64,000 nt of DNA from a virus: the IMG/VR virus record IMGVR_UViG_3300037847_002819, positions 1 through 64,000 of that record. One strand, given 5' to 3'. The notes beneath the pieces are model-generated. The model was not told the DNA's origin. It saw only the letters and a list, made by a program, of their open reading frames with translations, and made no database searches. The position numbers and the translations under genes are program-made. Position 1 is the stretch's first letter. Every line of letters starts with the position of its first letter. Shown in pieces: positions 41,900 through 55,910 of the stretch.

Positions 41900-42061
41900 G
41901 GGCTATTGGCGCAGTCAGGTAGCGCAACGGGCTTTTAATGAGGTTTTATCGAAGTAATAAATGAGGACTTGCTCAATTTTCGATTATGTGTTATACTTTC
42001 TCATAACTCATTTTCCTCAAAAGATACCCGTTGGTCGTGGGTTCGAACCCCACATAGCCCG
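41900..42061 (+). tRNA. tRNA-Lys(UUU) with an 88-base intron
   Basis: Acceptor GGGCTAT/ATAGCCC, D-stem GCGC/GCGC with GG in the loop, anticodon stem ACGGG/CCCGT, T arm GTGGG-TTCGAAC-CCCAC, discriminator G, no encoded CCA. The loop becomes CTTTTAA (anticodon TTT at 41934-41936) when 41938-42025 is removed, an intron at the canonical 37/38 position. CTTTT pairs with AAAAG and GAGG with CCTC, leaving three-base bulges AAT and ATA, a bulge-helix-bulge form (five pairs in the centre instead of four). The splice point is uncertain by one base because both give the same product. It would read AAA, a frequent codon here. Confidence 0.9.
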
Positions 42062-47825: not shown

Positions 47826-48026
47826 ATGATTAAGTTAACAATTTTGAACGAAACAGGACACACAGAATTAGTTATGGCTTCCGAAGAAGTCATTGAGCAG
47901 ATTGATACACACCCTACACATTGGGTTTTCATCAATGGTGAAATGATGGCTAGAGAAGAAATAGCAGGTATTAATTGGGACACTGTTGAGTCAGTTGATT
48001 TAACGCCAGCAATCGTTGGCGGTTGA
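47826..48026 (+). CDS. Ubiquitin-like/ThiS-MoaD-SAMP-type protein ending in Gly-Gly
   Basis: 66 residues, beta-grasp by pattern: strand IKLTILNET, strand HTELVMA, helix ASEEVIEQI, strand WVFINGEMM, and a final strand TVESVDLTPAIVGG. The end VDLTPAIVGG is the C-terminal pattern of ThiS, MoaD and archaeal SAMPs (V-x-L-x-P-x-V/A-G-G), in which the free Gly-Gly is adenylated and then thiolated or joined to Lys. It has its own promoter and terminator, so it is probably made in large amount. An E1-like enzyme and a JAMM protease are encoded 6-8 kb downstream. Confidence 0.82.
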   Translation: MIKLTILNETGHTELVMASEEVIEQIDTHPTHWVFINGEMMAREEIAGINWDTVESVDLTPAIVGG

Positions 48027-48056
48027 TTTTATTAACCCGACTATATTTGCGACATT

Positions 48057-48100
48057 TGGGGGGAGAATGGGGCTTAGTGCCTTGTTCTCTCCCCTTTTTG
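48057..48100 (+). terminator. Terminator of the Ubl gene
   Basis: GGGGAGAA..GGC (48060-48073) pairs with GCC..TTCTCTCCCC (48079-48094), followed by TTTTT. It isolates the Ubl gene from the RNR genes downstream. Confidence 0.8.
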
Positions 48101-48113
48101 CAGTGTGGTTAAT

Positions 48114-48485
48114 ATGAATTTGAAACATTTTATGTCTCCCGATGCTCTTAAAATTTTATTTGAACTGAATGGTTGGAATTTGACAAAACCATTCATCCGT
48201 GATGAAGTAGCGGTTTTTACACCGGACTTCTATCCCGAAGGTTATGTTATTGGTCGTGGTAAATACGGCCAAATATACGCTTCGGGTGAAACAAAAATTC
48301 TATTCAAGGATAAGGAATATTCTTCTGTAAGTATTTTATTAGAAGAATATCCTTTCGCAGTTAATAACTTTGATGAGTGGGAATTCATCATTGAGAAAGA
48401 GTGGGTAATTAGTAAAAAAGGTGAGTGGCTTTCATCCTTTTCAACTCTATTTGAATTACCTAAAGCCAGCAAATATAGGTGTTAA
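48114..48485 (+). CDS. Small protein upstream of RNR
   Basis: 123 residues from the ATG at 48114 (MNLKHFMSPDALKILFELNG); a GTG three codons upstream is possible. Alpha/beta, with aromatic-rich strands (VIGRGKYGQIYASGETKILF). Only three bases separate it from the RNR start, so it is probably co-translated. No family recognised. Confidence 0.7.
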   Translation: MNLKHFMSPDALKILFELNGWNLTKPFIRDEVAVFTPDFYPEGYVIGRGKYGQIYASGETKILFKDKEYSSVSILLEEYPFAVNNFDEWEFIIEKEWVISKKGEWLSSFSTLFELPKASKYRC

Positions 48486-48487
48486 AG

Positions 48488-50350
48488 ATGTCAAATACAG
48501 CAATAGAAACATTGTCTGATATTACAGTGCATATGAAATATGCAAGGTATTTACCAGCAAAGAAAAGAAGAGAAACTTGGAATGAAATAGTTGAAAGAAA
48601 CAGAAATATGCATATTAAAAAATATCCAGAATTAACAGAAGAAATAGGTGAAATATATGAAAAATTCGTCAAAACAAAGAAAATCCTCCCTTCTATGCGG
48701 TCTATGCAATTTGGGGGCAAACCTATCGAAATTAGTCCAAATAGGGTTTATAATTGCGCTTATATGCCTATTGATTCCCTTTTATCTTTTAGCGAGGCTA
48801 TGTTCCTACTTCTCGGTGGAACGGGGGTTGGATATTCAGTCCAACGCCATCATATTGAGCAATTACCGGAAATCATTCAACCTAATCCCGAAAGAAAACG
48901 CAGGTATCTTATTAGTGATTCTATTGAAGGATGGGCTGATTCAATTAAAATCCTTTTGGAGTGTTATACCGGAAATAGGAGTAGTAGTCCTATTTTTGAT
49001 TATTCTGATATTAGACCAAAAGGAAGCCTATTAAGGACTAGTGGCGGAAAAGCGCCGGGTTTTCAGCCATTAAGGGAATGTTTAGTTAAAATAGAAGGAA
49101 TGCTTCAAAATAAAAATAATGGCTCTAAATTAGATTCAATTGAAGCACATGATATTATGTGTTATTTAGCAGATGCAGTATTAGCAGGTGGTATTAGGAG
49201 AGCCGCTATGATTAGTTTATTTAGTGCAGATGATTCTAAAATGATTAGTTGTAAGTCTGGTAATTGGTGGGAAAATAATCCACAAAGAGGTCGTGCAAAT
49301 AATTCAGCAGTTATTCTTAGACATAGAGTGACTAAAGACTTCTTTATGGGTCTATGGGAAAGAATACAACATAGTGGTAGTGGTGAACCGGCAGTTTATT
49401 TCAGTAATGATAAAGATTGGGGAACAAACCCATGTTGTGAAATTGCTTTGCGACCATATCAGTTTTGTAATCTAACAGAAGTAAATGCTTCTGATATTAC
49501 AGACCAAGCAGATTTAGAAGCAAGAGTAAAAGCGGCTTCATTCATAGGAACGCTTCAAGCAGGTTATACTGATTTCCATTACCTTAGAGAAATATGGAAA
49601 AAGAACACTGAAAAAGATTCTTTGCTCGGTGTATCTATGACAGGTATTGCTTCTAATGTTGTTGAACCTTTAGATTTAGAAATGGCTTCGTTTGCCGCTA
49701 AACAGGAAAACAAGAGGATTTCTAAAATCATTGGTGTAAAACCTGCGGCTAGAATTACTTGTGTAAAACCTGCTGGAACTACTTCTCTCGTTTTAGGAAC
49801 AAGTAGTGGTATTCATGCTTGGCACGACAATTATTACATTCGAAGAATTAGAGTAGGTAAGAATGAAGCAATCTATTCTTATCTATCATCTAATCATCCG
49901 GAATTGGTTGAAGATGAATACTTCAATCCGGAGGAACAAGCAGTTATTTCTATTCCTCAAAAGTCTCCCGATGATGCTATCACAAGACATGAATCAGTAT
50001 TTGATTTATTGGAGCGTGTTAAGAATTTTAGTATTCGTTGGGTTAGAACAGGCCATATTGATGGTTTGAATAGCCATAATGTGTCTGCAACAATATCTGT
50101 TAAAGATGATGAATGGGATGATGTTGGCGAATGGTTATGGATGAATAGACACTACTACAATGGTTTGTCTGTATTACCTTATGATGGAGGAACATACAAA
50201 CAAGCACCATTTGAAACAATAGATAAGGAAACATATGATGAAATGATGTTAGCCTTAACTAAGATTGATTTAACTAAAATTACCGAAGAACAAGACGATA
50301 CTAACTTAACAGGCGAATTGGCTTGTGCTGGTGGGGCTTGTGAAATCTAG
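48488..50350 (+). CDS. Ribonucleotide reductase, probably class II (adenosylcobalamin)
   Basis: 620 residues from the ATG at 48488 after AGGTGTTAAAG. NRVYNCAYMP gives the first redox Cys (about 90); NPCCEIALRPYQFCNLTEVN (about 318-337) is the finger-loop with the N-x-C-x-E active site; the C-terminal pair is CAGGAC. Single-chain layout with no small subunit gene nearby, no ATP cone, and the RPYQxCNLTEV form all fit class II enzymes, which use vitamin B12 and need no oxygen. It makes deoxynucleotides for virus replication. Confidence 0.9.
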   Translation: MSNTAIETLSDITVHMKYARYLPAKKRRETWNEIVERNRNMHIKKYPELTEEIGEIYEKFVKTKKILPSMRSMQFGGKPIEISPNRVYNCAYMPIDSLLSFSEAMFLLLGGTGVGYSVQRHHIEQLPEIIQPNPERKRRYLISDSIEGWADSIKILLECYTGNRSSSPIFDYSDIRPKGSLLRTSGGKAPGFQPLRECLVKIEGMLQNKNNGSKLDSIEAHDIMCYLADAVLAGGIRRAAMISLFSADDSKMISCKSGNWWENNPQRGRANNSAVILRHRVTKDFFMGLWERIQHSGSGEPAVYFSNDKDWGTNPCCEIALRPYQFCNLTEVNASDITDQADLEARVKAASFIGTLQAGYTDFHYLREIWKKNTEKDSLLGVSMTGIASNVVEPLDLEMASFAAKQENKRISKIIGVKPAARITCVKPAGTTSLVLGTSSGIHAWHDNYYIRRIRVGKNEAIYSYLSSNHPELVEDEYFNPEEQAVISIPQKSPDDAITRHESVFDLLERVKNFSIRWVRTGHIDGLNSHNVSATISVKDDEWDDVGEWLWMNRHYYNGLSVLPYDGGTYKQAPFETIDKETYDEMMLALTKIDLTKITEEQDDTNLTGELACAGGACEI

Positions 50351-50358
50351 GTGATTAG

Positions 50359-50703
50359 ATGAAAACTCGCAGGATTCGGCCTATCCGTCATTTGAGTTTT
50401 GATGACTTTGTAAGAGTCATTATTTCTTATGATGATGTATGGTCTAATTCTGCGAAAAAGAAGATTAAATTAGCACTTGACGCTTGTGCAGGTTTAGAAG
50501 ATGAAACAGACAAAAAGTATAGACTTTGGCAGACTGTTAAAATAGTATTATGGGAAATACCCGAAGCGGTGGAAAGAGGCTTTGCTGACTATGCTAGAAA
50601 AGCATTTGCAGAAAGACATGAAGCCCTTCAATACCATAATAAAAACCAAACTGATTTCTATAATAATTATATTTACGGAATAATGAAAGGGTGGTATAAA
50701 TGA
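50359..50703 (+). CDS. Small helical protein
   Basis: 114 residues, MKTRRIRPIRHLSFDDFVRV, Arg-rich start, then helices with LALDACAGLEDETDKKYRLW. It follows RNR by eight bases and overlaps the next gene. A regulator of RNR or unrelated; not recognised. Confidence 0.7.
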   Translation: MKTRRIRPIRHLSFDDFVRVIISYDDVWSNSAKKKIKLALDACAGLEDETDKKYRLWQTVKIVLWEIPEAVERGFADYARKAFAERHEALQYHNKNQTDFYNNYIYGIMKGWYK

Positions 50704-50867
50704 AAGAAAAAGACCCCGAATATACAAAGAGTCATTGGTCGTATAAAAAAAGAGTCGCTACTAAATGTAGGATTTGTGGAGGCCAACTGCTTTTACCGGA
50801 AGATATGAAAAAAGAAATTCACAAAGAATGTGTTAATAATATAAATGATAATAGTTATATGATGTGA
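50700..50867 (+). CDS. 55-residue zinc-finger microprotein
   Basis: MKEKDPEYTKSHWSYKKRVA then KCRICGGQLLLPEDM ... IHKECVNN. CxxC with H-x3-C makes a zinc finger like those in short phage DNA-binding proteins. Start overlaps the upstream stop. Confidence 0.73.
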   Translation: MKEKDPEYTKSHWSYKKRVATKCRICGGQLLLPEDMKKEIHKECVNNINDNSYMM

Positions 50868-50871
50868 TAAA

Positions 50872-52119
50872 ATGAATGAATTAAAAATAAGAATACGAAG
50901 ACCTGACGATTCCCAAGAATTTTGGAGAACAACGATTAAAAGTAATTTGATTAAATCGGCATACGATGTTCAAATTCAATCTAATAGAAATGCGAAAGAC
51001 CCTGTTCATTCTGCTATTACGACTTTCTTTTCTAGTAACTTAAAATCTTCAAGAGGATATTATAATAGACACTATAAATATATGAGATTACCTTCACAGG
51101 ACTTCAACGAAGTTATTGATATTGGAGGTTGTTTGATAGCATTAGGAAGAAGGGGTAATAGATATACTCTAAATGGTAAAACGGAAAGTTTGCATACTAT
51201 TGCTTCTGCTTTGGCTAGAGTTACTTTCAAGTCCTGTTTTGAAAAAGATGTGGCTAAACTAATGAAAGGACTGTATGCTACTCTAAGTATTCCCGAAGAT
51301 GTAAAGTATTGTTTAGAGAATAGAGTGCCATTTCATTTCTTCGATAATTTTCAGAAAACCGAAGTTAGATTGAATTGTCAACAGATTAGCGATAGCGAAG
51401 TTGCAATTGAAGTTAGTGATGGAGTTTGGGGAACAATGACTAATAAAGAATTAGAATCCTTCTGTGCTTTTTATCTTCATGGTAAAAAGAGAAGTAAAAA
51501 ATGGATGTTTTGTTCTCCTGAGATTCTTTATGAAAGAACAGTAGGAGTTAAACCAAAAATTTCAGATAGAAAACTAATGATTGAATTTCTAAAGCAAAAT
51601 AGACAACAGGATATTGTCGAAGATAGGGCTAAGTTATTGGTTAAAGAAACGGCAGAAAAATATCCCGACAGAATCAAAGTCGTTTATGATGATGATAAAG
51701 AAGTATCAGCCATGTATGTTCGTGGAAAAGGTTGGGATTGGAAACTTACTAACACTAAATTCAAATCAGATATTCAGATGGTTTCGACATTTGTTTACTC
51801 AACACCCGATACTGATGAATACTTCGCACAAAGAATTGAGAAGTGGGAAGAAGAATGTTTGGGAATTAATAATGATGCTGTTAATAATGGTTCTGAAGAA
51901 GAAATTAAATTACCGCCAAAACCAACTAATGAACCTCAATGGAAAGGGCCGATTTGTATTGATAATATGTCTGGTGGTTCTTCTTTAGGCGACCAATTTG
52001 TAGCAAGAGCATTAGCACTTCTTAATGATACTTTAACAGTAAAAATAGTTAACACGATTAAAAGGTATATATGTAATGATGAAAATAGTATAAGAGTTGA
52101 TTTTGATGAAATGCAGTGA
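50872..52119 (+). CDS. Protein of unknown function upstream of TFB
   Basis: 415 residues. The N-terminal 120 residues are basic with aromatic motifs (YYNRHYKYMRLPSQDFNE) and a strand-rich part (IDIGGCLIALGRRGNRYTLN). The C-terminal 100 residues are acidic (EEECLGINNDAVNNGSEEE). I find no motif I can name. The stop lies inside the next gene, so translation is coupled to TFB, which suggests a role in transcription or replication. Confidence 0.75.
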   Translation: MNELKIRIRRPDDSQEFWRTTIKSNLIKSAYDVQIQSNRNAKDPVHSAITTFFSSNLKSSRGYYNRHYKYMRLPSQDFNEVIDIGGCLIALGRRGNRYTLNGKTESLHTIASALARVTFKSCFEKDVAKLMKGLYATLSIPEDVKYCLENRVPFHFFDNFQKTEVRLNCQQISDSEVAIEVSDGVWGTMTNKELESFCAFYLHGKKRSKKWMFCSPEILYERTVGVKPKISDRKLMIEFLKQNRQQDIVEDRAKLLVKETAEKYPDRIKVVYDDDKEVSAMYVRGKGWDWKLTNTKFKSDIQMVSTFVYSTPDTDEYFAQRIEKWEEECLGINNDAVNNGSEEEIKLPPKPTNEPQWKGPICIDNMSGGSSLGDQFVARALALLNDTLTVKIVNTIKRYICNDENSIRVDFDEMQ

Positions 52120-53005
52120 ATGTGGTTGTTTAGTCTTTAATTATAATGAAAGACTAGGAGAGACAGAATGTAGTGATTGCGGATTAGTAATCGTAACAGA
52201 TTTGTTTGAAGAAAGTGTCAGAATGATAGATGATGGAAAGGTTGTCCATTCTGCTGAAAGGGGAGAATTAGGTTCTGTAATAACAGGAAAGGGTTCGTTT
52301 AAGTTTAATAGAAGAGGTAACAATAATGTTATTCCTAGACATATTACTGCTGGTTTGCAGACTTGTAATATGATTCTATCTTCTATCCAAATAAACCATC
52401 CTCTTAAAGATAGAGTTAAGGAATGTTACTTAGAAGCACAAAAGAAAGGTTTGTTTGGAAAAATCAAACTAGAGGCTAGATGCACTGCTACTGTCTTCTA
52501 TGTTCTGAAAGAAAATAGAACACCTGTTCCTATGAAAAAATTATGTTCTGAATATTCGTGTTCAACTAAAGTAGTGAATAGATTAGTGCGGAAAATGATT
52601 CACCACTTCAAAAGTAAGAATATACTTTATGGAGCAGACCCCTCTTTTATGTTAAAGCAGACCTGTTCTAGAATAACAGATGATGTAATGTTTTATTCTA
52701 ATGCTATGGATTTGATGTTAAAGTTAGAACCTATCATAGAAGACCATTGTTATCATAAATCAAAGGCATATTACGCAAGTGTATGTTGGGTGGCGACAAA
52801 TATGTTTAGATATTATGGTGTAACTAAGAATGATATTTCTGAAAGCACAGATATTTCCTTATCAGCAATAGGAAAGACAAGTAAAAAATTAATCCAAATG
52901 TTAGGATTCGATAAAATGTCCGAAATTAAAGGGCGAGATATAATAGAATATGGTGATATAAATGACAATAAGAATGAGAGATGTAATACCGACAAGCGAG
53001 CATAG
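52106..53005 (+). CDS. tfb: Transcription factor B (TFIIB homologue)
   Basis: 299 residues from the ATG at 52106 (MKCSECGCLVFNYNERLGET). N-terminal zinc ribbon C3-x2-C6 ... C22-x2-C25, a B-finger/linker region, then two cyclin-like repeats (about 95-190 and 195-285), as in archaeal TFB. TFB binds the BRE beside the TATA box and recruits RNA polymerase. A virus copy could redirect host polymerase to the palindrome-linked promoters of this genome; that link is inference. A TTG three codons upstream is an alternative start. Confidence 0.92.
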   Translation: MKCSECGCLVFNYNERLGETECSDCGLVIVTDLFEESVRMIDDGKVVHSAERGELGSVITGKGSFKFNRRGNNNVIPRHITAGLQTCNMILSSIQINHPLKDRVKECYLEAQKKGLFGKIKLEARCTATVFYVLKENRTPVPMKKLCSEYSCSTKVVNRLVRKMIHHFKSKNILYGADPSFMLKQTCSRITDDVMFYSNAMDLMLKLEPIIEDHCYHKSKAYYASVCWVATNMFRYYGVTKNDISESTDISLSAIGKTSKKLIQMLGFDKMSEIKGRDIIEYGDINDNKNERCNTDKRA

Positions 53006-53141
53006 ATATTGGAAAAAGGATTTTCTAAATACTTATGTGACTACCAATAATAAAAGAAAAGAGTATTGTAAATATCAAACTCTTTTGGGTCGTAAAGACT
53101 CGTTTAAGATATATGAAGAAGCAAGGAGGAAGTTTAAGTGA
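52962..53141 (+). CDS. 59-residue basic protein
   Basis: MTIRMRDVIPTSEHRYWKKD then TTNNKRKEYCKYQTLLGRKD and a Lys/Arg end. It starts 44 bases inside the end of the tfb gene in another frame and its stop overlaps the next start. Basic; possibly nucleic-acid binding. Confidence 0.62.
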   Translation: MTIRMRDVIPTSEHRYWKKDFLNTYVTTNNKRKEYCKYQTLLGRKDSFKIYEEARRKFK

Positions 53142-53773
53142 ATATATTTGCACTATCAAGAAATCCGCAAGAAGCGGCACTAGAAATGTTAGACAAGCAC
53201 ATAGTTAAAATGCCAACGGAAACTTGCCAAATGTTACATACAAATGTTTTGTATTTTGACTACATTGAACATTATGGTGAAGAACCTACTTTAGCGCAAG
53301 TAAAGCAGTTTCATAGAGATATTAATTCAAAACTAATGAAACCTGCTATGTTGAATCATCCTTCAACAATATGGGCTAGACAGAACCCTCATAATACTCG
53401 ATGGTTATATGAGCATGGTAAAGCATTATGTGAAGAATATACCTATCGCTACGGCAAGGTTCATGGTTCGCAATCTAGAATATTAGATATAGCATATACG
53501 ATTGATGAAGATTCTAATTGGTCGTTTGCTACACCTGTAACTATTGCTATGGATGATAAGTATAGATTAGTCAAAGATAACAGGATTCCCGATTGGGACT
53601 TCGTAATTAATAGTTACAGACATTATTACCTTCAAGGTAAATGGAGGTTTGCTGAATGGAGGGCAAATAGAATGCCAACATGGTGGCCTAAAGACCACTA
53701 CAAAAACAAATACAATGAAGGAATAGACAATTATAATAAAAGATGGAATGCAAAATTGGAGAGATTAGAATGA
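53138..53773 (+). CDS. Conserved phage protein, DKHxxKM type
   Basis: 211 residues, GTG start after AAGGAGGAAGTTTAA. MNIFALSRNPQEAALEMLDK with DKHIVKMPTETCQML, then HPSTIWARQNPHNTRWLYEH and LCEEYTYRYGKVHGS match a family widespread in phages; I know it only as uncharacterised. Invariant His, Lys and Trp/Arg residues suggest an enzyme. It ends in the middle of the operon leading to the E1-like gene, which overlaps it by four bases. Confidence 0.8.
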   Translation: MNIFALSRNPQEAALEMLDKHIVKMPTETCQMLHTNVLYFDYIEHYGEEPTLAQVKQFHRDINSKLMKPAMLNHPSTIWARQNPHNTRWLYEHGKALCEEYTYRYGKVHGSQSRILDIAYTIDEDSNWSFATPVTIAMDDKYRLVKDNRIPDWDFVINSYRHYYLQGKWRFAEWRANRMPTWWPKDHYKNKYNEGIDNYNKRWNAKLERLE

Positions 53774-54330
53774 AGAGAAAAATATTGATTATAGGAGTGG
53801 GTGGTATTGGGAGTTTCCTAGTGCCACTATTAGATAAAGTAGGAATGTATGATATTTCAGTGGCAGACCCCGATAAGGTCGAAACTAAGAATTTAACATA
53901 TCAAAACTTTACAGAAGAAGATGTTAATTTTCACAAAGTAAGTAGGATGAATGCTCGATATAATAGTGTTAATAATGCGAGCAAATTTCCTATCCTAACT
54001 TCTAAACAAATGCAAGGATATGATTTAGTCGTATGTTGTGTTGATAATTTATCAGTTAGAAGAACCTTGTATAATTCAAATATTAAATGGTTGGATTTAA
54101 GAGCGCAAGGTCGTAATGGGGCTTTCGTTACTTCTGATGCAGACCCTAAAATGTATGATTCTTTATTAGCAGGGCCAGATGGTTCATTTTCTTGTCAAGG
54201 AAATTCATGGGATGGTAGCAATAGTGGCGTTCATTTCATGCAAGTTGTTATTGCAGGTATTGGCGCACAATGGATTCAAAGATGGTTTAACAAAGAAGAT
54301 GTAAAATCCTTTATGGTAATTAATGTATAG
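53770..54330 (+). CDS. ThiF/MoeB/E1-like adenylating enzyme
   Basis: 186 residues from the ATG that overlaps the previous stop. Rossmann-type ATP-binding GVGGIG (10-14), DPDKVETKNLTYQ (33-45) equal to the DxDxVxxxNLxRQ motif, Arg59/Asn61 for ATP, VDN (91-93, the Asp that binds Mg-ATP), and LRAQGRNGAF. A single Cys142 in SFSCQG could be the thiol acceptor. It lacks the zinc CxxC pairs of MoeB and is shorter than family members (usually about 240), so it is a minimal adenylation domain. Its expected role is to adenylate the C-terminal Gly of the Ubl. Confidence 0.88.
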   Translation: MKRKILIIGVGGIGSFLVPLLDKVGMYDISVADPDKVETKNLTYQNFTEEDVNFHKVSRMNARYNSVNNASKFPILTSKQMQGYDLVVCCVDNLSVRRTLYNSNIKWLDLRAQGRNGAFVTSDADPKMYDSLLAGPDGSFSCQGNSWDGSNSGVHFMQVVIAGIGAQWIQRWFNKEDVKSFMVINV

Positions 54331-54341
54331 GAGGAATAAAA

Positions 54342-55421
54342 ATGAAAGGAGAGAAATGGACAACAGGACAAATAATGAGAGGCGCATATTTGCGCTTAGT
54401 GGAAAAAAGAACTTGGCCGCAAATTAAAACACAGATGGAAAAAGAAGGCTTTCCTGTTAGAAGTGTTGATAATTATGGTGCTACAATTAGAAGATGTATC
54501 AATCAATATAACATATCTTTTGATGATGAACCTAAAACAAGTGATTGGAGAAGTGACCCTGCCACAAGAAAACAATGCAGGTATATTGCTTCTATGACAC
54601 TACCCGATGGTAAAAATAGCGAAATCACTAAATTAACAAATGAGTTAATAGAAGCCTCAAAGCGTGGTGAATTTGATAAAGAGGCCGCTAATGAGCAGAT
54701 TAAACTATTAGAAACTACTCTATTAGAGGCTCAATCTTTCAATGTTAAAGCGAAGAATAATACTAACTTGTTATACAGTGGTGTTGCTACCCGTTGGACT
54801 CCAAAAGAAGATGCTCTTTTGGTTAATTGGATGAATGAGCATAAAGACGGAGAACAGGGTTTTCCTCCTAATCTGAATAGAACCCCTAGAGCGTGTCGTG
54901 AAAGATGGTTGAGAAGCCTAAAACATCTAACTCCTTCTATTAAGACTGTTAGAAAGAATGGCACATATACTCTTCAAGATGAAACACCTTTGGAGCAAAC
55001 ATTGGTGTATTATGAAGAACCTAAGAATACAAGTAAAAGACCTAAAAATTGGACTCGCTTGAATAATGAAAGTATTGAATATCCTAATACTAACAAACCG
55101 TGGACATATGATGAATCATTAGAAGCATTGGTAATGTGGCATTCTATGTCAATTGATGATGCGAGAGAAAAGTTTGGTCGCCCATATTGGGTGATAGCAA
55201 AACATATCGAGAAGCATTTTGATTTTACATATGCTGAAAGTAAATCGTTGCTTATGGAGGCCGCAGGTATCAAGAATCAATTAGAGGCTAATAAGTTAGC
55301 AGAAAAGAAACCTTCGCTTAGGAAGCGTTGGAGAGACAAGAGAAACGCTAAAAAGCAAAGGCGACTAGAGAAGAAACTAGCAAAGACCCAAAGAAAATTG
55401 GAGAAGATGGAGTTGGAATAA
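54342..55421 (+). CDS. Myb/SANT-like DNA-binding protein
   Basis: 359 residues. Three Myb-like segments: WTTGQIMRGAYLRLVEKRTW (about 6-50), WTPKEDALLVNWMNEHKDGE with ACRERWLRSLKH (about 150-195), and WTYDESLEALVMWHSM (about 250-290). The C-terminus is an extremely basic coiled coil (KRWRDKRNAKKQRRLEKKLA). Trp at the start of each repeat and RERW in the recognition helix fit sequence-specific DNA binding. It lies between the E1-like and JAMM genes, so it is probably an operon partner by expression only. Start after GGAGGAATAAAA. Confidence 0.82.
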   Translation: MKGEKWTTGQIMRGAYLRLVEKRTWPQIKTQMEKEGFPVRSVDNYGATIRRCINQYNISFDDEPKTSDWRSDPATRKQCRYIASMTLPDGKNSEITKLTNELIEASKRGEFDKEAANEQIKLLETTLLEAQSFNVKAKNNTNLLYSGVATRWTPKEDALLVNWMNEHKDGEQGFPPNLNRTPRACRERWLRSLKHLTPSIKTVRKNGTYTLQDETPLEQTLVYYEEPKNTSKRPKNWTRLNNESIEYPNTNKPWTYDESLEALVMWHSMSIDDAREKFGRPYWVIAKHIEKHFDFTYAESKSLLMEAAGIKNQLEANKLAEKKPSLRKRWRDKRNAKKQRRLEKKLAKTQRKLEKMELE

Positions 55422-55910
55422 ATGAATGGTAAATTTAATACAGTAATGAAAAGAATAGATTTAGAAGCAAATAGATTAAAGGCTGAATTATACATAGATG
55501 CTTATTATGAACAAGGTATGGAAATAAAAGATTTATTTGAACATATTTGGTTTGCTTCAACAGAAATACTGAATGGTTTAGAGGTTCAAGTTGTTATTGA
55601 TTCTAATGACGCTATTCATATTTCGTCAGGTTCAGCAGGTTATGTTGATTTTCAAATTGACCCTGTTGGAATGAAATTACCGATTAAGTGCTGGATTCAC
55701 ACACACCCATTCGGTAGTGCTTATTTCAGTGGAACTGATATTAGAACAGTTAGTATTTGGCAACCATTAATGAAGACTGCTTATGTGTTAGGTGGAGATG
55801 GGCATTATGGTTCTTGGAATCAAAAAGAACCTTATCTATTAGATATATACCGTAACCATGAATATGAAAGAACACAAGTTTGGGTTAGAAAAGGAGATGA
55901 AGAAGAATGA
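55422..55910 (+). CDS. JAMM/MPN+ metalloprotease (Ubl-processing candidate)
   Basis: 162 residues. WIHTHPFGSAYFSGTD gives the JAMM zinc motif HxHP(x6)SxxD with H93, H95, S103 and D106; the partner Glu is probably among Glu41, Glu48 or Glu54. JAMM proteins cut isopeptide or linear bonds after ubiquitin-like proteins, or trim Ubl precursors. With the E1-like gene 1.1 kb upstream and the Gly-Gly Ubl at 47.8 kb, it is a likely deconjugase. Stop overlaps the next start through GATGAAGAAGAATGA. Confidence 0.88.
   Translation: MNGKFNTVMKRIDLEANRLKAELYIDAYYEQGMEIKDLFEHIWFASTEILNGLEVQVVIDSNDAIHISSGSAGYVDFQIDPVGMKLPIKCWIHTHPFGSAYFSGTDIRTVSIWQPLMKTAYVLGGDGHYGSWNQKEPYLLDIYRNHEYERTQVWVRKGDEEE

What the first reader, a model, noticed from the sequence alone, without database searches (positions are those of the whole stretch)
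47826..55910. Ubl, E1-like enzyme and JAMM protease: a virus-encoded protein-tagging or sulfur-carrier pathway
Three genes within 8 kb supply all core parts: a 66-residue beta-grasp protein ending VDLTPAIVGG (47826), a minimal E1-like adenylating enzyme with DxDxVxxxNLxxQ (53770), and a JAMM protease with HTHP(x6)SxxD (55422). Archaea use SAMPs with E1 (UbaA) and JAMM1 for protein modification and sulfur transfer. A virus carrying its own set could modify host proteins, mark them for the proteasome, or supply sulfur for tRNA or cofactors. I know of no description of such a set in this kind of virus.
Basis: partly seen in the sequence, partly recalled or inferred. Interest (0 to 1): 0.93.

Follow-up and report, generated by a model that had tools for sequence, protein, structure and literature searches.

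The report
Viral ubiquitin-like tagging gene set
A virus of marine archaea, its relatives and some bacterial viruses carry their own miniature ubiquitin-like tagging kit (tag, activating enzyme, tag-removing protease and an unknown fourth protein), suggesting that such viruses tag proteins in infected cells with their own label.

Summary
Window 47826-48026 encodes a beta-grasp ubiquitin-like protein (Ubl) ending in Gly-Gly, 53770-54330 a minimal E1 and 55422-55910 a JAMM protease. The virus is a magrovirus-type archaeal tailed virus (95.9 kb). AlphaFold2 models of the Ubl and JAMM match ubiquitin/MoaD/ThiS and JAMM deubiquitinases. Gly-Gly, the E1 cysteine and the JAMM zinc-site residues are invariant across roughly 75-100 distinct homologues each. 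The three genes occur all-or-none, and all 10 capsid-sampled magrovirus records of 80 kb or more have them.

(1) Most magrovirus Ubls carry 1-3 variable residues after Gly-Gly, and one phage Ubl is fused at that Gly-Gly to 160 further residues; yet tailless genomes also keep an intact JAMM. So JAMM probably trims precursors and also removes conjugates. (2) A fourth gene, X (50872-52119), belongs to the set. Bacterial phages carry a compact X-Ubl-JAMM-E1 operon homologous to it.

Best reading: a virus-encoded, E2-less Ubl conjugation/deconjugation system. A sulfur-carrier role is not excluded. X has no E2 similarity above background. The E1 alone was reported in archaeal viruses before; I found no description of the set. 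No activity is shown.

The parts
47826..48026 (+). UBL: 66-aa ubiquitin-like beta-grasp protein ending in Gly-Gly
   Evidence: AF2 pLDDT 93; PDB fold matches ubiquitin/MoaD/ThiS; GG invariant in 85 distinct homologous ORFs; profile match to the phage UBLs, probability 97%, E 5e-11
50872..52119 (+). X: 415-aa protein of unknown function, proposed fourth component; C-terminal domain with one invariant Cys (C362, 'GPICIDN...GDQ..AR.LALLND...VNTI')
   Evidence: found in 184/184 loci with the three genes; C-terminal domain homologous to the protein directly upstream of the UBL in phages and in an Aenigmatarchaeota contig (hhalign score 38 vs shuffled maximum 17.5)
53770..54330 (+). E1: 186-aa minimal E1/ThiF-like adenylating enzyme, invariant Cys142
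   Evidence: Pfam ThiF 3.5e-17; profile matches E1, MoeB, ThiF, Uba5 and Cap2 structures; 'SCQ' in 95 of 95 distinct homologues and in all 14 phage homologues
55422..55910 (+). JAMM metalloprotease, 162 aa
   Evidence: E54, H93, H95, S103 and D106 invariant; 97 of 100 distinct homologues intact, the other three cut by contig ends; AF2 pLDDT 92; closest PDB folds are JAMM deubiquitinases
52097..53005 (+). TFIIB-like transcription factor, neighbour conserved in 182/184 loci; not in the phage operons, so probably not part of the system

Best explanation
A virus-encoded, E2-less ubiquitin-like conjugation and deconjugation cassette of four proteins. Shown by sequence and structure: a beta-grasp Ubl with an obligatory Gly-Gly; a minimal E1 with an intact nucleotide-binding site and one invariant cysteine; a JAMM protease with an intact zinc site; and a fourth protein, X, that travels with them in both archaeal and bacterial viruses. 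Inferred mechanism: JAMM cuts after Gly-Gly to expose the Ubl C-terminus where a short tail or fused domain is present. E1 adenylates that terminal glycine and captures it on Cys142. The Ubl is then passed, with or without help from X, onto lysines of viral or host proteins. JAMM later removes it, making the modification reversible. Targets are unknown. Because the cassette also occurs in bacteriophages, its general role is more likely to alter or protect virus-relevant proteins than to feed a proteasome.
For: Fold and family of all three parts. Catalytic residues invariant. All-or-none presence: 11 of 20 capsid-sampled magrovirus records have all three, and the nine that lack them also lack X and GroEL, so they miss that genome region; all 10 records of 80 kb or more have the set. 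Intervening genes come and go (the RNR in 90, the Pyr_excise gene in 119 of 184 loci) while UBL, X, E1 and JAMM stay in 184/184. The phage set has 13 distinct X-UBL-JAMM-E1 clusters on one strand, several with another ORF or a short gap before JAMM, plus one with a fused UBL. Precursor logic: tails of 0, 1, 2 or 3 variable residues after GG (15, 9, 50 and 2 of 76 distinct UBLs), at least 6 changes of tail state on the E1 tree (3 forced by well-supported branches); the phage UBL of L432/L434 is fused at its 'LEGG' to 160 further residues, next to the JAMM gene. Deconjugation logic: tailless magroviruses keep 21 distinct intact JAMMs, and 13 tailless phage UBLs also have a JAMM, so JAMM has work other than trimming. 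JAMMs that trim precursors and remove conjugates are established (CsRpn11, PMC6043591).
Against: No activity, conjugate or target is shown. No E2 or E3 was found; X was tested for E2 similarity and does not exceed background. The E1 lacks the CxxC zinc pairs of MoeB/ThiF/UbaA and the residues N-terminal to the Rossmann fold, so catalysis may differ. SAMP-type systems can do both tagging and sulfur transfer, so these data cannot separate the two. The homology of the magrovirus and phage JAMM proteins beyond the motif is weak (score 27 vs shuffled maximum 22).
Confidence: 0.6

Rival explanations
1. Sulfur-carrier system: E1 adenylates the Ubl, a host cysteine desulfurase or rhodanese supplies sulfur, and the Ubl thiocarboxylate thiolates tRNA or a cofactor useful to the virus; JAMM only trims precursors or frees stuck Ubl.
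For: ThiF is the closest NCBIfam equivalog of the E1 (9.6e-15); UBL fold matches include MoaD and ThiS; archaeal SAMPs are bifunctional (PMC6043591, PMC2948915).
Against: No sulfurtransferase, rhodanese, ThiG, MoaE or tRNA thiolase was seen among the genes scanned near the set or by eye in the right-hand 32 kb; JAMM is kept where no trimming is needed; gene X is not a known sulfur acceptor. A host partner could supply the missing steps, so this is not excluded.
Confidence: 0.22
2. Counter-defence: the viral Ubl and JAMM interfere with a host tagging pathway (decoy Ubl plus removal of host tags) rather than running a dedicated pathway.
For: Borg elements are proposed to encode many de-SAMPylases against host tagging (PMC12660748); bacterial hosts use Ubl conjugation against phages (PMC10097602, and Hor et al. 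2024 cited in PMC12660748).
Against: A complete matched set with its own E1 and X, inherited all-or-none, is more than a decoy needs. No evidence that Poseidoniales have such a defence was obtained here.
Confidence: 0.12
3. Virion assembly or maturation factor: Ubl and JAMM act on virus structural proteins, like the Ub-like TAPI and JAB-containing TAPK of lambda-type tail assembly.
For: Phage Ub-like/JAB pairs in tail-assembly clusters are described (PMC1779556); the phage JAMM of L415 matches PHROG tail-protein JABs (2.8e-12).
Against: The cassette lies in the replication/early arm, on the strand opposite to the capsid, portal and terminase genes; lambda clusters have no E1; X and TFB neighbours are not structural by PHROGs. 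Virion proteins could still be the conjugation targets.
Confidence: 0.06

Closest known systems
Archaeal SAMP / UbaA / JAMM1 system (Haloferax volcanii)
   Same: Ubl with terminal Gly-Gly, a single E1, no E2/E3, a JAMM protease
   Different: E1 scores 30 bits against the UbaA model with cut-off 450; UBL has no ThiS/MoaD family match; no zinc CxxC pairs; a fourth protein X; encoded by viruses as a unit
Caldiarchaeum ubiquitin system (CsUb, E1, E2, RING E3, CsRpn11)
   Same: JAMM protease that cuts a precursor after Gly-Gly and removes conjugates (PMC6043591); CsRpn11 is the second PDB fold match
   Different: no E2 or E3 found; E1 is a minimal ThiF-type domain
PRTRC cassette (plasmids; also partly in Acinetobacter phage ME3)
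   Same: JAB, ThiF-family E1 and a small Ubl-like protein on mobile elements; the E1 matches PRTRC_ThiF at 1e-10
   Different: far below the PRTRC_ThiF cut-off (41 vs 145 bits); no PRTRC A or C match for JAMM or UBL; no other PRTRC genes seen
Bacterial anti-phage Ubl systems (type II CBASS Cap2/Cap3, Bil)
   Same: E1 and JAMM relatives; the window E1 matches PADLOC E1-E2 models (1.6e-11) and the phage JAMM matches BilC weakly
   Different: no E2 domain, no cGAS-like enzyme, carried by the virus rather than the defending host
Lambda-type tail assembly TAPI/TAPK (Ub-like plus JAB-NlpC)
   Same: Phage-encoded Ub-like protein and JAB peptidase (PMC1779556)
   Different: no E1; fused to NlpC and tail domains; located in the structural module
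Borg de-SAMPylases and SAMP (PMC12660748)
   Same: Virus-like archaeal elements carrying JAMM proteases, one also a SAMP
   Different: multicopy JAMMs; the passages read place the E1 in the host genome; no four-gene unit described
crAss-like phage gp76/gp77 (ThiF plus JAB)
   Same: Adjacent E1 and Prok-JAB genes near a B12-type RNR
   Different: Much larger E1 (383 aa) and JAB (414 aa) proteins, about 29% identity over 58% of the E1; no Ubl identified

Membership tests
SAMP/UbaA/JAMM1 system | Beta-grasp modifier with C-terminal Gly-Gly | tested here: met
   but most relatives need 1-3 residues removed first
SAMP/UbaA/JAMM1 system | E1 of the UbaA (MoeB-like) family | tested here: not met
   NCBIfam SAMPActivE1UbaA 30.1 bits vs cut-off 450; no CxxC in 95 E1s
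SAMP/UbaA/JAMM1 system | JAMM/MPN+ protease with E..HxHx7SxxD | tested here: met
SAMP/UbaA/JAMM1 system | Covalent isopeptide conjugates on proteins | not testable with these tools
   needs mass spectrometry
ThiS/MoaD sulfur carriers | Match to the ThiS/MoaD family | tested here: not met
   No Pfam or NCBIfam match to the UBL up to E 10 other than an irrelevant one; only the fold agrees
ThiS/MoaD sulfur carriers | Linked sulfur donor or acceptor enzyme | tested here: inconclusive
   None among the genes scanned; a host enzyme could serve
E1 / ThiF superfamily | Rossmann fold with GxGGxG, conserved Asp/Asn/Gln/Lys, and a catalytic Cys | tested here: met
   Pfam ThiF 3.5e-17; G9-G14, D33, D35, N41, Q45, K56, D92, C142 invariant. 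Catalytic role of C142 inferred, not tested
JAMM/JAB metalloproteases | JAMM zinc-site motif and fold | tested here: met
PRTRC system | PRTRC_ThiF equivalog plus PRTRC A-F | tested here: not met
   E1 41 bits vs cut-off 145; no other PRTRC protein matched for UBL or JAMM
Eukaryote-like ubiquitination cascade | An E2 (UBC fold) enzyme | tested here: not met
   X vs E2 profile: score 18, within shuffled (up to 19) and other-gene (up to 23) background; no Pfam E2 family match for X
CBASS / Bil anti-phage Ubl systems | E2 or E1-E2 protein with the defence operon | tested here: not met
   PADLOC matches only the E1 domain of E1-E2 models; UBL and X no match

The most novel reading that the evidence does not exclude
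X-Ubl-JAMM-E1 is a distinct virus-born Ubl modification system shared by archaeal and bacterial tailed viruses. X, whose C-terminal domain keeps a single cysteine plus Asp, Arg, Asn-Asp and Thr across all lineages, is a new kind of Ubl acceptor or ligase that replaces the E2/E3.
Probability: 0.35. Interest if true: 0.93.

Novelty: new variant of a known kind. Interest (0 to 1): 0.82.

Why it matters
Viruses are known to exploit host ubiquitin, and bacteria to use Ubl tagging against phages. A complete tag, activating enzyme and protease set inherited as a unit by abundant ocean viruses would mean that prokaryotic viruses run their own tagging pathway. It also gives a very small natural system (66 + 186 + 162 + 415 aa) in which to ask whether conjugation can work without an E2, and what gene X does.

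Tried and rejected
Rejected as unsupported, not disproved. A search for Prok-E2_B in related bacterial genomes was uninformative (nothing rang even in controls). Link to the B12-type RNR: only 90 of 184 loci have it between UBL and E1, so it is not part of the set. Chance cluster: rejected by all-or-none inheritance. Recent host capture: no Poseidoniales genome was among the best 80 loci of the genome scan with the E1; the closest cellular hits are magrovirus contigs binned into bacterial MAGs and DPANN contigs. That scan is pattern-limited, so it does not settle the origin. INPHARED holds no tblastn match to UBL, JAMM or phage X. PHROGs and PADLOC gave no function for X.
Full report
WHAT THE WINDOW IS. 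The window is bases 1-64000 of a 95,889-base IMG/VR virus record. It has a terminase, portal, HK97-type protease and capsid gene on the minus strand and, on the plus strand and in the right-hand part, a TFIIB-like factor, GroEL, DNA ligase and, by my reading of the ORFs, clamp loader, clamp and a split family-B polymerase. GC is 34%. This matches published descriptions of magroviruses (order Magrovirales, viruses of Poseidoniales; PMC10768690, PMC12999244), which are 90-110 kb with two opposed gene arms, GroEL and TFB. The taxonomic placement is my inference from that gene content.

THE THREE GENES ARE REAL. UBL: no sequence family matches it, but AlphaFold2 with 62 homologues gives pLDDT 93 and strands 2-8, 11-17, helix 19-28, strands 32-36, 39-41, helix 43-46, strand 56-61, then a flexible tail. 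Of the top 50 PDB fold matches almost all are ubiquitin, SUMO, NEDD8, ISG15, Ubl domains, MoaD or ThiS. E-values are individually weak (0.014 and up), but the agreement is uniform. E1: ThiF Pfam 3.5e-17; the family profile matches E1, Uba5, MoeB, ThiF, Uba4, Cap2 and MccB structures. JAMM: sub-threshold Prok-JAB by Pfam, AMSH by profile (E 1.2e-4), JAMM deubiquitinases as the best fold matches.

CONSERVATION. Three searches of 2.9 million viral contigs brought 156 loci. UBL, E1 and JAMM are found together, same strand, in the order UBL-E1-JAMM, in 134 of the 158 sequences searched (157 loci plus the window); I attribute the rest mainly to contig ends and the 10-kb flank limit, without checking each. 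Many loci are overlapping views of one contig, so counts of distinct proteins matter more: 85 UBL, 97 E1 and 100 JAMM ORFs. GG is invariant; E1 'SCQ' (Cys142) is in 95 of 95; JAMM E54, H93, H95, S103 and D106 in 97 of 100, the other three cut by contig ends.

UNIVERSALITY. To avoid sampling on the cassette itself I fetched magrovirus records through the major capsid protein and searched 20 of them whole. Eleven have E1, JAMM and UBL, nine have none. The nine are fragments of 48-78 kb that also lack X and GroEL, i.e. they lack that genome region. All ten records of 80 kb or more carry all three. The 185-kb record has two copies of each and is probably a concatenated or chimeric assembly.

A FOURTH GENE. 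Between UBL and JAMM, other genes come and go (RNR in 90, Pyr_excise gene in 119, Myb-like in 84 of 184 loci), but X (50872-52119) is in 184 of 184. Independent evidence came from distant relatives. L011 is a bacteriophage contig (sigma factor, DNA polymerase I) with overlapping UBL, JAMM and E1 genes and a 754-aa protein just upstream. A broader search with distant E1s gave further contigs. Fourteen distinct ones carry X-UBL-JAMM-E1 in that order on one strand; several have a short gap or one extra ORF before JAMM, and a sigma factor and/or DNA polymerase follows in the ones I read downstream (L011, L410, L414, L417, L418, L419, L426). An Aenigmatarchaeota MAG contig (L162) has X, UBL and E1 in a row beside a tyrosine recombinase; its UBL and E1 frames are broken, and the downstream part of the UBL region reads MVGG-stop in another frame. 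Magrovirus and phage proteins are homologous by profile comparison: E1 E 3e-46, UBL E 5e-11; X scores 38 against a shuffled maximum of 23; JAMM only 27 against 22. The X C-terminal domain keeps Gly, Cys, Asp, Arg, Asn-Asp and Thr in all 45 sequences aligned, including L162.

MECHANISM CLUES. (i) Only 15 of 76 distinct UBLs of the first sets end exactly in GG (the window's does); 9, 50 and 2 carry 1, 2 or 3 more residues of varied sequence (SL, NC, NY, Q, Y ...). Tail presence changes at least six times on the E1 tree, three of them forced by well-supported branches. Such a tail must be removed before an E1 can use the glycine. (ii) In phage L432/L434 the UBL domain ends in LEGG and continues for 160 residues, a natural fusion, next to the JAMM gene. 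(iii) Tailless magroviruses still have 21 distinct intact JAMMs, and 13 phages with tailless UBLs also have a JAMM. JAMM therefore probably also removes the UBL from conjugates. CsRpn11 shows that one archaeal JAMM can cut both a precursor and conjugates, and CsJAMM cuts SAMP precursors (PMC6043591). These are inferences from anatomy; nothing here shows activity.

WHAT IT IS NOT. The E1 is not UbaA, MoeB, ThiF or PRTRC_ThiF by curated cut-offs. No E2 was found: X was tested and does not exceed background. It is not a known defence system by PADLOC. It is not in the tail-assembly module, unlike the lambda TAPI/TAPK pair (PMC1779556).

PRIOR KNOWLEDGE. RaFAH (PMC8276007) reports MoeB/ThiF as one of the most prevalent auxiliary genes of archaeal viruses and links it to ubiquitination. 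Borgs encode many de-SAMPylase-like JAMMs and one SAMP (PMC12660748). Two magrovirus profiles, the magrovirus functional survey, the archaeal Caudoviricetes paper and the Mediterranean phage paper do not mention a Ubl or JAMM. The original magrovirus paper and a later genome paper were not held, so an annotation in their tables cannot be excluded.

VERDICT. A real, conserved, previously undescribed (as far as I could search) virus-encoded Ubl module with a new fourth partner. Confidence is high in the parts and their linkage, about 0.6 in protein modification as the function, about 0.2 in a sulfur-carrier role.

Noticed in passing
41900-42061 (+): Rfam tRNA match (53.6 bits) spanning 162 bases for a 71-position model, i.e. 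an intron-containing tRNA that ARAGORN missed.
   Followed up: no
45846, 55910, 56221, 56490: Several proteins end in ...EEE; probably because the ribosome-binding site of the next overlapping gene is read in frame. The JAMM family keeps this EEE in about 95% of members, so it should not be taken for a functional motif.
   Followed up: partly
L323:1986-5657 (crAss001) and L319: crAss-like phages have adjacent unknown protein (gp78), Prok-JAB metalloprotease (gp77) and ThiF-type E1 (gp76), near a B12-dependent RNR; possibly a distant relative of the same kind of module.
   Followed up: partly
L432:4756-5463: Natural UBL fusion: UBL domain ending LEGG followed by 160 residues of unknown family.
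   Followed up: partly
L158, L159, L160: Magrovirus contigs binned into MAGs labelled Maricaulis and Altibacter: virus contamination in public bacterial genomes.
   Followed up: no
L058/L061/L115 (IMGVR 3300021958_000021, 184,733 bases): Two copies of the whole cassette in one 185-kb record, likely a concatenated or chimeric magrovirus assembly.
   Followed up: partly
53138-53773: Pyrimidine-dimer DNA glycosylase (Pyr_excise, 4e-8) overlapping the start of the E1 gene by four bases; present in 119 of 184 loci.
   Followed up: no
L162 X residues 424-494; L417 X residues 635-705: Weak, sub-threshold matches of the X C-terminal domain to Pfam DUF7737 (0.0076 and 0.033); a lead to what X is.
   Followed up: no
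L011:3130-6507: The phage RNR ORF (1125 aa) appears to contain an intein or homing-endonuclease-like insertion.
   Followed up: no
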